The notes under the pieces were generated by a model that ran no database searches, had not been told where the DNA came from, and saw only the letters and a list, made by a program, of their open reading frames with translations. Below, one piece after another: positions 15,890-25,899 of a DNA stretch of 64,000 bases. The first letter of the stretch is position 1; each line of letters opens with the position of its first letter. The stretch spans positions 62,001 through 126,000 of the forward strand of contig NZ_MUKU01000013.1 of the NCBI RefSeq assembly GCF_002081825.1, given 5' to 3'. Source of the DNA: Chromobacterium haemolyticum (lineage in GTDB: Bacteria > Pseudomonadota > Gammaproteobacteria > Burkholderiales > Chromobacteriaceae). The position numbers and the translations under genes were made by a program.

Positions 15890-17149
15890 ATGAACGTCAA
15901 AGACTATATGCAACAGACGGGCAAGGCCGCCCGCAAGGCCAGCCGCGAACTGGCCCGCGCCGACACCGCGCAGAAGAACCGCGCGCTGCTGGCGATGGCG
16001 GACGCCATTCTGCGCGATCAGGCCAAGCTGTTGGCCGCCAATGCTCAGGACATGGACGCGGCGCGCAAAGCCGGCTTGGAACCGGCGCTGCTGGAGCGGC
16101 TGGCTTTGACGGAGAAAACCATCGCCGGCATGGCCGAAGGGCTGCGCCAAATCGCCGCGCTGCCGGATCCGGTGGGCGAGGTCAGCGAGATGGCCTACCG
16201 GCCGTCCGGCATTCAGTTGGGCAAGATGCGGGTGCCGCTGGGCGTGGTGGGCATCATCTACGAGGCCCGCCCCAACGTCACCGCCGACGCCGCCGGCCTG
16301 TGCCTGAAATCCGGCAACGCCGCGCTGCTGCGCGGCGGTTCCGAGGCCTTCCACAGCAATCAGGCCATCGCCGCCTGCGTGTACGAGGGCCTGCGCGCGG
16401 CCGGACTGCCGGCGGAAGCGGTGCAGGTGCTGGCCACCACCGACCGCGCCGCGGTGGGCGAGTTGATCACCATGCCGCAATACGTGGACGTGATCGTGCC
16501 GCGCGGCGGCAAGGGCCTGATCGCCCGCATCAGCGCCGAGGCGCGGGTGCCGGTGATCAAGCACCTGGACGGCAACTGCCATGTCTACATCGACGACACC
16601 GCCAGCCCGGACAAGGCCTTCAACATCGCGCTGAACGCCAAGACCCACCGCTACGGCACCTGCAACACCATGGAAACCCTGCTGGTGCACACCGCCTTCG
16701 CGGAATTCATCCTGCCGCGTCTGGCCGAGGCCTATTGGGAAAAAGACGTGGAGCTGCGCGGTTGCGAACGCACCCACGCCATCCTGGGCGACAAGGTACG
16801 GCCGGCCAGCGACGAGGACTGGGCCAGCGAATATCTGGCGCCCATCCTGGCCATCAAGGTGGTCAAAGACCTTGACGAGGCCATCGAGCATATCAATCAC
16901 TGGGGCAGCCATCACACCGACGCCATCGTGTCCGAGGACTACGGGCGCACGCGCCGCTTCCTGCGCGAGGTGGACTCCGCCAGCGTGATGGTCAATGCCT
17001 CCACCCGCTTCGCCGATGGCTTCGAATACGGGCTGGGCGCGGAAATCGGCATTTCCACCGACAAGATCCACGCTCGCGGCCCGGTGGGCCTGACCGGCCT
17101 GACCAGCCAGAAGTGGATCGTGCTGGGCGACGGCCAGATCCGTTCCTGA
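15890..17149 (+). CDS. proA: Glutamate-5-semialdehyde dehydrogenase (gamma-glutamyl phosphate reductase)
   Basis: A 419-aa enzyme, the family's usual length. It reduces gamma-glutamyl phosphate to glutamate-5-semialdehyde with NADPH, the second step of proline synthesis. [31 protein letters not shown] and the catalytic cysteine C258 in [15 protein letters not shown] are visible, as is the C-terminal [14 protein letters not shown]. The partner proB is not adjacent. A strong terminator follows. Confidence 0.96.
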
Positions 17150-18421: not shown

Positions 18422-18805
18422 ATGCCCAATCTGATCGAACACTGCAAATCCCTATTGCTGCAAACCGCGCTCGGCGTCGCCCTGAGCTGCGCGGTGGTGC
18501 CGGCGCTCGCCAACCTGAACGACCCGGTCGCCACGCTGAAGGCCAAGGCGCCTCCGCCCGTCGTCGCCAACTGCCTGGACGAGCGCATGCGCAAGCTGCG
18601 CATTCCCAGCGAGTACATCGAACGCGAGCGCGGCGGAGACCGCGGCGAGACCGTGCGGCTGACCAACCCCGCCACCAATAAGGACGGGCTGGAAATTCTC
18701 ATCCGCCCGGACGGCGACGCCAGCAAACTCACGGTGAACACCCATGGCCTCAGCTACAGCAAGGCATGGCGCAAGCTGGTCAATGACTGCGCACAGCGCA
18801 GCTGA
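18422..18805 (+). CDS. Small exported hypothetical protein
   Basis: A 127-aa product with a signal peptide (LLLQTALGVALSCAVVPALA, likely cleaved before NLNDP). The mature part has two cysteines (ANCLDERM, VNDCAQ) and a middle strand-rich segment. No family recognised. The start at ATG 18422 gives a sensible signal peptide; an upstream in-frame start at 18392 would add ten basic residues. Only a weak RBS (AAGAAAG). Confidence 0.55.
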   Translation: MPNLIEHCKSLLLQTALGVALSCAVVPALANLNDPVATLKAKAPPPVVANCLDERMRKLRIPSEYIERERGGDRGETVRLTNPATNKDGLEILIRPDGDASKLTVNTHGLSYSKAWRKLVNDCAQRS

Positions 18806-18822: not shown

Positions 18823-19021
18823 TGTGGACAGCGCCGTCCACAACCCCGCCGCTGTGGAAAGTGTGCACAAACTGTGCACAACACTGTGGATAACATAATA
18901 GACACTCCGGCAGACGCCCGGTTTGATTGCATCCGCTTGCCTTTCCACCTTGTGCACAACTTTCTAAAACCCAGCCGCGCTGTGTGTAATGTGGATGAAA
19001 CGGGGACAACCTTGTGGATAA
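18823..19021. promoter_or_regulatory. Cluster of DnaA-box-like 9-mers
   Basis: Eight TGTGnnnAn-type 9-mers lie in one orientation over 200 bp. TGTGGATAA (perfect reverse complement of the DnaA box TTATCCACA) occurs at 18885-18893 and 19013-19021. TGTGCACAA occurs at 18862-18870, 18873-18881 and 18951-18959. Weaker forms are at 18823, 18853 and 18990. No gene occupies this interval. A DnaA-titration or DnaA-controlled promoter is inferred, not shown. Confidence 0.5.
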
Positions 19022-19097
19022 GCCAAGCCGCCGCTCCCACCTGACAAAAATTCTCCAGCGGTTACACTGGACAGGAGATCTTTGTCCAGGAGCCCGC

Positions 19098-20489
19098 ATG
19101 TCCAATTACCACGCCAAGTACGAACTGCACTACGCCGCCGGCAAGGCGCTGCGCCAATCCTGCTCCCGCACCCTGCAAGCGGAAAACCGGCTCAGCGCGC
19201 CGCGAGACGTGGTGGCCATGGTGGAGCAAACCTCTCAGGGACGGGTGCAAGGCCTGATTCCGCTGCGCTACAGCCGCATGCAGGTATCGCCGTTTACCTT
19301 TTTCCGCGGCTTCGCCATGATTCAGGCCGCCGATCTGGCCTCCAATCCCAGCAGCGGCCTGAACTTGCAGATCTGCGGCGATGCCCACCTGATGAATTAC
19401 GGCTTCTTCGCCTCGCCGGAACGGCAGCTGATCTTCGACATCAACGATTTCGACGAAACCCATCACGGCCCGTGGGAATGGGATTTGAAACGGCTGGCGG
19501 TCAGCCTGGTGCTGGCCGCGCGCGGCCAGGGCTTCAGCGAAAGCCAGGCGCGGGACATGGTAAGCCGCGCCAGCGAGGTCTACCGCCGCCGCGTCAACGA
19601 GTACGCCCGCATGGGCCAATTGGAGCTGTGGTACACCAAGGTGGGCTTCGAGCAATTACTGGAGCGCGCGCCCACCGACGCCATCCGCCAGCAAATGCTC
19701 AAGCTGTCCGACAAGGCCAGACACCAGACCCAGGAAAAGCTGCTGCCCAAGATGACGGAACTGGAGGACGGCACGCTGCGGCTGCGCGACAATCCGCCGG
19801 TGATCTTCCACCTTCATGACAAAAACACCCTACTGGACAACGACGACAGCTGGCTGTCCGCCGACGACGCCGAAGCTTTGGTCAAGCCGATGCTGGACAA
19901 CTACATCGTCACCCTGAAGGAAGACCGCCGCCAGTTGCTGGAGCGCTTCCGGCTGGTGGATTGCGCGTTCAAGGTAGTGGGCGTGGGCAGCGTGGGCACC
20001 CGCTGTCTGGTGATGCTGTTGCAGGACAATTTCGACCAACCGCTGTTCCTGCAATTGAAGGAGGCACGCTCTTCGGTGCTGGAGCCCTACACCCAGGCCT
20101 GCGTGCACGGCCACCAGGGCAAGCGAGTCGTGTTCGGCCAGCGCCTGATGCAGGCCGCCAGCGACCTGTTTCTGGGTTGGACCACCGGCCCCGCCGGCCG
20201 CCACTTCTACGTGCGCCAGCTGCGCGACATGAAGGCCGCGCCGTCGCTGGAAGCCTTCGCCACGCCGGAGGCGCTCACCGCCTACGGCCAGGCCTGCGCC
20301 TGGGCATTGGCGCGGGCGCATTCCAAATCCGGCGGCCAAGCCGCCCAACTGGCGGGCTATGTGGGTGACAGCGACAAGCTGGATCAGGCCATCGCCGACT
20401 ACGCGCTGGCCTACGCTGACCAAGTTGAGGCCGATTACCAGGTGTTCAAGGCCGCCATCGCCAGCGGCCGCCTGCAAGTCCACGACTAA
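19098..20489 (+). CDS. DUF2252 domain protein (kinase-like motifs)
   Basis: A 463-aa cytosolic protein of the DUF2252 family. ICGDAHLMNYGFF (H97, N100) followed by IFDINDFDETHHGPWEWDLKRL (D117, D119) resembles the catalytic loop and metal-binding DFD of aminoglycoside-phosphotransferase/protein-kinase folds. Family function is unknown, so phosphotransfer is inference. Start ATG 19098 follows CAGGAG at a good distance; the frame extends 28 codons upstream into the DnaA-box cluster and I reject that part. A 9-bp GC hairpin (20503-20523) follows the gene. Confidence 0.8.
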   Translation: MSNYHAKYELHYAAGKALRQSCSRTLQAENRLSAPRDVVAMVEQTSQGRVQGLIPLRYSRMQVSPFTFFRGFAMIQAADLASNPSSGLNLQICGDAHLMNYGFFASPERQLIFDINDFDETHHGPWEWDLKRLAVSLVLAARGQGFSESQARDMVSRASEVYRRRVNEYARMGQLELWYTKVGFEQLLERAPTDAIRQQMLKLSDKARHQTQEKLLPKMTELEDGTLRLRDNPPVIFHLHDKNTLLDNDDSWLSADDAEALVKPMLDNYIVTLKEDRRQLLERFRLVDCAFKVVGVGSVGTRCLVMLLQDNFDQPLFLQLKEARSSVLEPYTQACVHGHQGKRVVFGQRLMQAASDLFLGWTTGPAGRHFYVRQLRDMKAAPSLEAFATPEALTAYGQACAWALARAHSKSGGQAAQLAGYVGDSDKLDQAIADYALAYADQVEADYQVFKAAIASGRLQVHD

Positions 20490-24980: not shown

Positions 24981-25727
24981 TCAGCGTTTGCGCGCGTAAA
25001 TGAAGAACTCGCGGTTGCCATCGCCGCCGGTGATCGGGCTGTCAAACCACTTCAACAGTTCGAAACCCTGCTCCCGCACGGCTTCGCTGATCTTTTCCCG
25101 CACCCGCGGGTACAGGCTCTCGTCGCGTACGATGCCCCCCCTGGCCAAACCTTCGCGTCCCACCTCGAACTGCGGCTTCACCAGGCTGAGCAGATGGCCG
25201 CCGGGACGGATCAAGGGCAGCGCCGACGGCAGCACCAGGCTCAGAGAGATAAAGGACACGTCGCACACCATCAGGTCGAAGGGCCGCCCGTCATTGGCCT
25301 CCAACAAGGCGGCATGGTCCAGCGCCCTGGCGTTTACTCCCTCGAAATAGCGCACCCGCGGGTCCGTTCGCAGCCGCGAATGCAATTGATCGTGGCCCAC
25401 GTCCACGCCCACCACCCTCCGCGCGCCTTGTTGCAGCAGGCAATCGCTGAAACCGCCGGTGGACTGGCCCACGTCCAAAGCCAGCGCGCCGCGCGGGTCC
25501 AGGCCGGACGACTCCAGCGCGCCCAGCATTTTCAGGCCGCCGCGCGACACGAAACGATCGGACGGGTCAGCGGCGATATCGAAACGGCTGCCCGGCGCGC
25601 ATTTCTGGCTGGGCTTGCTCACTAGCGCGCCGTCGCAACTGACCCGCCCGGCGGCGATCAAGTTTTGCGCCGCCGTGCGCGAAGCCGCCAAGCCCAGTTC
25701 CACCAGCAACACGTCCACTCGCGTCAT
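24981..25727 (-). CDS. tlyA: TlyA-family rRNA 2'-O-methyltransferase / putative haemolysin
   Basis: A 248-aa protein with an N-terminal S4 RNA-binding domain (MTRVDVLLVELGLAASRTAAQNLIAAGRVSCDG) and an FtsJ-like methyltransferase core (ALDVGQSTGGFSDCLLQQGARRVVGVDVGH, DLMVCDVSFISL, LVKPQFE). TlyA 2'-O-methylates cytidines in rRNA in mycobacteria and others; the haemolysin name is historical. Start ATG 25727 has GGGAGA upstream; the frame opens 20 codons earlier without an RBS. Confidence 0.9.
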   Translation of the reverse strand: MTRVDVLLVELGLAASRTAAQNLIAAGRVSCDGALVSKPSQKCAPGSRFDIAADPSDRFVSRGGLKMLGALESSGLDPRGALALDVGQSTGGFSDCLLQQGARRVVGVDVGHDQLHSRLRTDPRVRYFEGVNARALDHAALLEANDGRPFDLMVCDVSFISLSLVLPSALPLIRPGGHLLSLVKPQFEVGREGLARGGIVRDESLYPRVREKISEAVREQGFELLKWFDSPITGGDGNREFFIYARKR

Positions 25728-25899
25728 CACGCTCTCCCAACCATCGACAAAACCGCACAGGGTGGCAAGCACGCCGGCCGCTGTCAAGCCAAGACCATGA
25801 TCTCACCGTGCGGAGGCCCCTCCAACCGCGCTAGAATCGCTACATGCCAATCCGGCCCGCCGCCGCCCCCGGCGTCGGCAGCCTCAAGCGGAGACATGG

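What the first reader, a model, noticed from the sequence alone, without database searches (positions are those of the whole stretch)
18823..19021. Cluster of eight same-orientation DnaA-box-like sites away from any known origin gene
Two perfect TGTGGATAA boxes, three TGTGCACAA and three weaker boxes fall in 200 bp with no coding content. dnaA, dnaN, rpmH, parAB or gidA are not present in the window, so this is not obviously oriC. It could be a datA/DARS-like DnaA-titration or reactivation site, or a DnaA-regulated promoter for the DUF2252 gene.
Basis: partly seen in the sequence, partly recalled or inferred. Interest (0 to 1): 0.7.

Follow-up and report, generated by a model that had tools for sequence, protein, structure and literature searches.

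The report
Conserved DnaA-box cluster, probable DnaA sink
A short non-coding stretch near, but not at, the replication origin of a Chromobacterium carries two copies of a rigid five-site DnaA-binding array that has stayed at one chromosomal place in related bacteria while the genes around it changed, so it probably holds or resets the protein that starts DNA replication.

Summary
Nine sites within two mismatches of TGTGGATAA, plus a weak tenth in register, lie on one strand at 18823-19021. They form two five-box head-to-tail modules of identical geometry (offsets 0, 30, 39, 50, 62), 128 bp apart. None of 300 shuffled windows reached the density. A sequence model finds the cluster in 32 of 61 family genomes (18 of 19 Chromobacterium, 10 of 10 of a second genus, apparently Aquitalea, and 4 others). 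All 32 invariant columns of the 21-row alignment lie in boxes; spacing within modules is nearly rigid.

It is not oriC: GC skew does not switch there, and a better origin lies elsewhere. It is not primarily the DUF2252 promoter: the boxes remain where DUF2252 lies 0.8-0.9 kb away or is absent, including convergent proA/tlyA gaps. In ten genomes it sits 241-527 kb from the probable oriC, on the same side.

Best reading: a datA-analogous DnaA-binding locus that titrates, or otherwise regulates, DnaA soon after initiation. The DARS core geometry is absent from the window; no IHF consensus was found. DnaA binding and function are inferred, not shown.

The parts
18823..18893 (+). Module 1: five head-to-tail DnaA boxes at 18823, 18853, 18862, 18873, 18885 (offsets 0, 30, 39, 50, 62); gaps in the last four 0, 2 and 3 bp
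   Evidence: spacing in relatives
18951..19021 (+). Module 2: same geometry 128 bp downstream: 18951, 18981, 18990, 19001 (weak), 19013
18894..18950 (.). Inter-module spacer; its length varies among relatives (box B4 to box C start-to-start 22-67 bp) and it is poorly conserved
18422..18805 (+). Small ORF (127 aa, no Pfam match at E 0.001) just upstream; a relative lies upstream of the cluster in 27 of 30 cluster loci examined
19040..19075 (+). Promoter-like TGACAA ... TTACACT of DUF2252, outside the box array; a TTACACT stays upstream of DUF2252 in Aquitalea L005 and L006, where the boxes are about 0.9 kb away (read by eye; TTAAACT in L018 and L021)
19098..20489 (+). DUF2252 gene (PF10009), neighbour; not needed for the cluster to be conserved
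15890..17149 (+). proA (Aldedh family in Pfam; gene name by recall), left anchor of the conserved locus
24981..25787 (-). TlyA-like S4/FtsJ methyltransferase (name by recall), right anchor; convergent with proA where the genes between are missing

Best explanation
A chromosomal DnaA-binding locus, analogous to E. coli datA and to the DnaA-box clusters of other bacteria. DnaA, probably ATP-DnaA, binds the stronger boxes and fills the weaker ones between them as two head-to-tail oligomers, one per 71-bp module (about one protomer per 10 bp). Because the locus lies at 13-20% of the replichore from oriC in six Chromobacterium genomes, it is copied soon after initiation; the doubled site then takes up DnaA and lowers the free pool, opposing re-initiation. 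Shown here: the boxes, their rigid geometry, their conservation at one locus, their independence from neighbouring genes, and the distance to the probable oriC. Inferred: that DnaA binds, that the oligomer forms, and that the net effect is titration (or DnaA-ATP hydrolysis) rather than reactivation.
For: Density far above shuffles. Two in-register five-box modules. Model R1 matches 32 of 61 family genomes with 53.7-106.3 bits; the next scores are 25.3 and 18.2 bits. Rows used to build it match by construction; the four genomes of genera 7 and 8 (G038, G040, G043, G044) were not in it. Boxes are conserved and spacers are not: mean major-base frequency 0.83 against 0.50, invariant columns 32 of 89 against 0 of 85 (the aligner itself favours lining up boxes). 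In 21 rows B1-B2 and D1-D2 are 9 in all, A-B1 is 30 in 19 and 31 in 2, C-D1 is 30 in 16, while A-C varies 83-129. Where longer flanks were read the locus follows proA, and ends at tlyA where read that far, while genes between come and go. Same side and orientation relative to the probable oriC in ten genomes, 241-527 kb away. E. coli DnaA prefers double boxes with 2-3 bp gaps (PMC11317965, passages); the window has a triple box of that kind, making 2 overlapping of the 3 strict double boxes in G000. DnaA domain IV is 62 of 94 identical to E. coli and 15 of 15 chosen positions agree.
Against: No binding data. Strict double boxes (TGTGNAYAA, gap 2-3) occur in the cluster in only 2 of 7 genomes searched (G000, G012); in the other five the only one is elsewhere. 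The inner boxes are weak in relatives: at most one mismatch to TGTGNAYAA for B1 in 13, B2 in 11, B3 in 6 and D3 in 4 of 21 rows, against 17-21 of 21 for A, B4, C, D1, D2 and D4. No perfect IHF consensus within 150 bp in 29 of 30 loci, unlike datA. Absent from G013, same genus, and no clear match outside parts of one family, so it is lineage-bound. In 18 of 18 Chromobacterium loci the boxes sit about 70-120 bp before DUF2252, so some effect on that gene cannot be excluded. In 12 of 21 rows an inverted box with fixed spacing lies inside the array, which plain titration does not require.
Confidence: 0.6

Rival explanations
1. A DARS-like reactivation site: DnaA-ADP assembles on the array and nucleotide exchange is stimulated, raising DnaA-ATP.
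For: In 12 of 21 aligned relatives (a violaceum-like group) an inverted box stands 15 bp before box D1, with further boxes at 24 and 45-46; the E. coli DARS1 and DARS2 cores read 0, 14, 26 with the first box inverted (PMC5742627, passages). That review says DARS2 spacing is conserved in beta- or gamma-proteobacteria near E. coli.
Against: The window and the other 8 of 21 rows have no such box; spacing differs (15/24 against 14/26); position is 13-20% of the replichore, against about 66% (DARS1) and 41% (DARS2) in E. coli. No search for a separate DARS2 homologue was made.
Confidence: 0.14
2. A DnaA-responsive control region of DUF2252 (or of another neighbouring gene).
For: In 18 of 18 Chromobacterium loci the last box lies about 70-120 bp before DUF2252.
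Against: In nine loci of genus 2 DUF2252 begins 177-885 bp away, five of them 792-885 bp; G038 and G040 have the cluster in a convergent proA/tlyA gap, and G044 before a glutamine-synthetase-like gene, with no DUF2252 in the stretches read (12 kb, 3.2 kb, 3.2 kb). A promoter-like TTACACT stays with DUF2252 where the boxes are remote.
Confidence: 0.1
3. A site for another protein whose motif resembles the DnaA box, or for DnaA in a role outside initiation (for example transcription termination or segregation).
For: Function untested; in two relatives the cluster sits between convergent genes.
Against: The degeneracy (any base at position 5, T or C at position 7) is that of DnaA boxes, and three of the variants, TGTGGATAA, TGTGAATAA and TGTGGACAA, also occur at the probable oriC of G018.
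Confidence: 0.14
4. A replication origin, main or accessory.
For: Box density resembles an origin.
Against: GC skew negative on both sides; in G018 the cumulative-skew minimum (238,322) lies beside another box cluster (236,334-236,834), 352 kb away; the gap is 43% AT, best 40 bp 62.5%, against 77.5% at the probable oriC.
Confidence: 0.02

Closest known systems
E. coli datA
   Same: Non-coding DnaA-box cluster near oriC (about 467 kb, 0.20 of the replichore; here 0.13-0.20 in six genomes); tandem head-to-tail double box (window); not essential (datA from PMC12371093, passages; here absent from one congener)
   Different: No IHF consensus; two five-box modules of equal geometry instead of boxes round an IHF site; different neighbours; hydrolysis untested
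E. coli DARS1 / DARS2
   Same: Intergenic DnaA-box cluster with fixed spacing; an inverted box precedes a tandem pair in 12 of 21 aligned relatives
   Different: No inverted box in the window; spacing 15/24 instead of 14/26; nearer to oriC
DnaA-box clusters of Bacillus subtilis and Streptomyces coelicolor (named in PMC5742627 and PMC10950094, passages only)
   Same: DnaA boxes away from oriC, reported there as analogous to datA and repressing untimely initiation
   Different: Other phyla; arrangement not compared here
Origin-near excess of DnaA boxes in E. coli (PMC12371093, passages)
   Same: DnaA boxes concentrated near oriC, proposed to titrate DnaA
   Different: Here many sites follow two fixed designs: the ten-site cluster and pairs 29/30 bp apart

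Membership tests
datA | several DnaA boxes in a non-coding region near oriC | tested here: met
datA | IHF-binding site between the boxes | tested here: not met
   perfect WATCAANNNNTTR within the cluster +-150 bp in 1 of 30 loci; the E. coli datA sequence printed holds one by eye; weaker IHF sites not excluded
datA | head-to-tail double box (2-3 bp gap) | tested here: met
   window 18862/18873/18885; but strict double boxes in the cluster of only 2 of 7 genomes; E. coli datA 3733/3745 in L106
datA | IHF-dependent hydrolysis of DnaA-bound ATP | not testable with these tools
   needs biochemistry
DARS | core of three boxes, box I opposed to II and III, spacing as in E. coli (0/14/26) | tested here: not met
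   no inverted box there in the window; 12 of 21 aligned relatives have 0/15/24; E. coli spacing
DARS | stimulates ADP release from DnaA | not testable with these tools
   needs biochemistry
oriC | lies at the GC-skew minimum | tested here: not met
oriC | AT-rich unwinding element | tested here: not met
   by AT content only
DnaA-regulated promoter of DUF2252 | boxes stay with the regulated gene | tested here: not met
chromosomal DnaA-box cluster (DnaA titration locus) | conserved multi-box array away from oriC | tested here: met
chromosomal DnaA-box cluster (DnaA titration locus) | binds DnaA in vivo and delays initiation | not testable with these tools
   needs ChIP-seq and deletion

The most novel reading that the evidence does not exclude
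Chromobacterium and relatives regulate initiation with a chromosome-wide set of DnaA sinks built on one geometry, a strong box every three protomers (29-30 bp): a ten-site double module fixed after proA, plus 5-7 TGTGGATAA pairs per Chromobacterium genome spaced exactly 29 or 30 bp and concentrated round oriC. It would be a titration system independent of the datA/IHF design, and would point to a defined head-to-tail DnaA filament with about 10 bp per protomer.
Probability: 0.33. Interest if true: 0.75.

Novelty: new variant of a known kind. Interest (0 to 1): 0.58.

Why it matters
How far bacteria outside the model species limit initiation by holding DnaA on the chromosome is open. This gives a discrete, lineage-conserved, apparently dispensable site in a beta-proteobacterium whose deletion would test it, with fixed box spacing that predicts how DnaA assembles on it. 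It also corrects the easy assumption that oriC lies beside dnaA in Chromobacterium.

Tried and rejected
Origin reading: rejected on skew, AT content and a better origin candidate. DUF2252 promoter reading: rejected as the conserved function. DARS core: absent from the window. IHF site: no perfect consensus in 29 of 30 loci. Plasmid search with the 293-bp gap: no match.

Order-wide search (250 genomes drawn, model R2, strict filters): clear matches only in G000, G024 and G028; 11 other genomes reach E 6e-5 to 0.008 and were not followed up; 236 gave none at 0.01, among them the family members G013, G050, G051 and G053, also without a clear match.

Model-negative family genomes: all 29 were searched for proA, found in 28; 7 of those 28 (4 of genus 10, 3 of genus 7) have two or more exact TGTGNAYAA in tandem within about 330 bp after proA, 21 do not, and in one of these 21 (G050) the locus is cut short, apparently by the contig end about 130 bp after proA. 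Whether the seven are homologous to the cluster was not tested.

Literature: searches for Chromobacterium DnaA boxes/oriC, beta-proteobacterial or Neisseria boxes, DUF2252 with DnaA, and box-pair spacing listed no paper on this locus (open-licence PMC only). PMC3135505 (passages) reports an Ori-finder oriC with eight DnaA boxes in the related Laribacter. PMC5320481 and PMC7512022 were seen only as listings.

Limits: the genomes are related, so counts are not independent events; the p-value for origin-nearness of box pairs is inflated by shared loci. Infernal E-values here are rough for strong matches, so bit scores are given. The oriC query also contained part of the neighbouring gene; in G041 mostly that gene matched. 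Gene names proA, TlyA, priA, IstB, heptosyltransferase and glycosyltransferase are by recall from sequence or Pfam domain. On re-checking I lowered the main confidence from 0.62 to 0.60 and raised the other-protein rival from 0.12 to 0.14, because strict double boxes in the cluster occur in only 2 of 7 genomes.

Full report
Observation. The window belongs to a Chromobacterium close to C. haemolyticum (DUF2252 protein 98% identical); it is contig C5:62001-126000 of G000. Between a 127-aa ORF ending at 18805 and the DUF2252 gene taken to start at 19098 lie nine DnaA-box-like sites on the + strand with at most two mismatches to TGTGGATAA, and a weaker tenth in register. Five exact TGTGNAYAA fall within 200 bp on one strand; 300 shuffles of the window gave at most two. 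Counting exact and one-mismatch TTATCCACA over the whole window the excess is modest, 8 against a mean of 4.0, reached by 3 of 100 shuffles, so the signal is the clustering.

Anatomy. The sites form two modules of equal geometry: offsets 0, 30, 39, 50, 62 in both, 128 bp apart. Each begins with a lone box, then 30 bp on a run of four with gaps of 0, 2 and 3 bp. In E. coli, DnaA binds preferentially to double boxes with 2-3 bp gaps (PMC11317965, passages). Strict double boxes of that kind (TGTGNAYAA, gap 2-3) are rare: G000 has three, two of them overlapping here. Against this, of seven genomes searched only G000 and G012 have one in the cluster; in the other five the only one lies elsewhere.

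Conservation. A protein search found DUF2252 in 18 of 19 genomes of the genus, and box clusters lie upstream in those 18. A sequence-only model from 21 clusters (18 Chromobacterium, 3 Aquitalea) matched 32 of 61 family genomes at 53.7-106.3 bits: 18 of 19 in genus 1, 10 of 10 in genus 2, 3 of 6 in genus 7, 1 of 1 in genus 8; the next scores are 25.3 and 18.2 bits. In the 21-row alignment 32 of 89 box columns are invariant and 0 of 85 others. B1-B2 and D1-D2 are 9 in 21 of 21 rows, A-B1 is 30 in 19 and 31 in 2, C-D1 29-31, B1-B4 31-32, D1-D4 30-32, while the distance between modules ranges from 83 to 129 bp. Not all boxes are equally kept: at most one mismatch to TGTGNAYAA is found in 20-21 of 21 rows for A, B4, C, D2 and D4 and 17 for D1, but in 13 for B1, 11 for B2, 6 for B3 and 4 for D3. 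In the order-wide search (250 genomes) only G000, G024 and G028, all of this family, gave clear matches.

Not tied to its neighbours. Where longer flanks were read (window, L003-L008, L148, L155, L219) the cluster lies downstream of proA; the right side reads to tlyA in the window, L003, L004, L008, L148 and L219, and to the glutamine-synthetase-like gene in L005-L007 and L155. In 18 of 18 Chromobacterium loci DUF2252 follows within about 120 bp; in nine genus-2 loci it begins 177-885 bp away, and 229 bp away in one genus-7 locus. In G038 and G040 the cluster lies between proA (+) and tlyA (-), a convergent gap without DUF2252; in G044 it lies before the glutamine-synthetase-like gene. A promoter-like TTACACT stays directly upstream of DUF2252 in Aquitalea L005 and L006, where the boxes are far away (by eye). 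So the boxes appear to be kept for something other than DUF2252 transcription, though a side effect on it is possible.

Not the origin. GC skew is negative in 29 of 32 2-kb windows, on both sides of the cluster, and near zero in the other three. In G018, cumulative skew falls through the cluster and through dnaA and reaches its minimum at 238,322, beside a second box cluster, with boxes in both orientations, at 236,334-236,834. Skew is positive beyond it and negative in the sampled stretches again from 2.7 Mb. The gap upstream of dnaA holds one perfect box. DNA matching the proposed origin region was found in 11 of 11 genomes searched, in G041 mostly through the neighbouring gene. The cluster lies 352 kb (G018), 354 (G007), 343 (G011), 527 (G012), 425 (G014), 323 (G006) and 246 kb (G038) from it, and about 276 (G020), 241 (G021) and 284 kb (G023) by subtraction of coordinates: ten of ten on the same side and in the same orientation. 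Nine of these genomes are single contigs, G007 has two. In the six Chromobacterium this is 13-20% of the replichore; E. coli datA is at about 20%, DARS2 41%, DARS1 66%. The cluster gap is 43% AT with no strong AT-rich stretch.

Mechanism. DnaA of this genome matches E. coli DnaA in 62 of 94 domain IV residues and at 15 of 15 chosen positions, among them R285, R334, R399 and H434 (the choice is recalled). The simplest mechanism is head-to-tail DnaA assembly on each module, with early duplication of the locus lowering free DnaA after initiation. Two facts hold this back from "it is datA": no perfect IHF consensus in 29 of 30 loci, and no measured binding or hydrolysis. One fact keeps a DARS-like role open for some relatives: in 12 of 21 rows an inverted box stands 15 bp before box D1, with boxes at 24 and 45-46, against 0/14/26 in E. 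coli DARS cores. The window lacks it.

A wider pattern. TGTGGATAA pairs with 2-32 bp between them number 39 in 10 of 13 genomes searched; 37 are 29 or 30 bp apart start to start, with 0 in the reversed-pattern control. In six Chromobacterium 35 of 35 pairs lie within 0.36 of the replichore from oriC, median 0.03 (shared loci inflate the p-value). In G000, 6 of 6 pairs with 0-30 bp between have this spacing. The step from lone box to first array box in the window cluster is also 30. This suggests one assembly rule for DnaA sites in this lineage; it is untested.

Novelty. DnaA-box clusters that regulate DnaA are known in E. coli, B. subtilis and S. coelicolor (PMC5742627 and PMC10950094, passages). 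My searches of open-licence PMC listed no description for Chromobacterium or this design. I call it a new variant of a known kind.

Noticed in passing
G018 C1:236,334-236,834; G000 C8:95,829-96,330 (L107, L109): Probable oriC of Chromobacterium, 161-296 kb from dnaA in six genomes; in G018 between a heptosyltransferase-like (-) and a glycosyltransferase-like (+) gene, beside the cumulative GC-skew minimum; one perfect box in the gap upstream of dnaA.
   Followed up: partly
G006, G007, G011, G012, G014, G018, G021, G023; G000: TGTGGATAA pairs spaced exactly 29 or 30 bp, 5-7 per Chromobacterium genome, concentrated near oriC; 59 and 89/90 bp spacings also recur, the latter at the probable oriC. 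Role unknown.
   Followed up: partly
G006 C1:3,619,294-3,619,489: Second-best cluster match (25.3 bits), about 25 kb from the probable oriC, made of two 29-bp box pairs 133 bp apart.
   Followed up: no
G000 C36:11243-11263 (L216) and six other genomes: Identical double box TGTGGATAACTTTGTGAACAA in 7 of 7 genomes searched; in G000 it lies at the start of a priA-like ORF (name by recall), a candidate DnaA-regulated replication-restart gene.
   Followed up: partly
G007 C1: 776,938, 794,657, 1,255,451, 2,269,866, 4,115,666, 4,330,610: A perfect DnaA box lies about 300 bp from each of six weak Bac_DnaA hits that look like IS21-type IstB ATPases (by recall), so an insertion sequence may carry and spread a box.
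   Followed up: no
L190, L193, L196, L197 and L207-L209, just after proA: 7 of 28 model-negative family genomes with proA still carry tandem boxes 11 bp apart after it.
   Followed up: partly
G013 (C61, L217): A smaller Chromobacterium genome (3.5 Mb, 150 contigs) lacks the cluster and DUF2252, and of 11 window proteins only proA matched in the 16 kb read there, so the element seems dispensable.
   Followed up: partly
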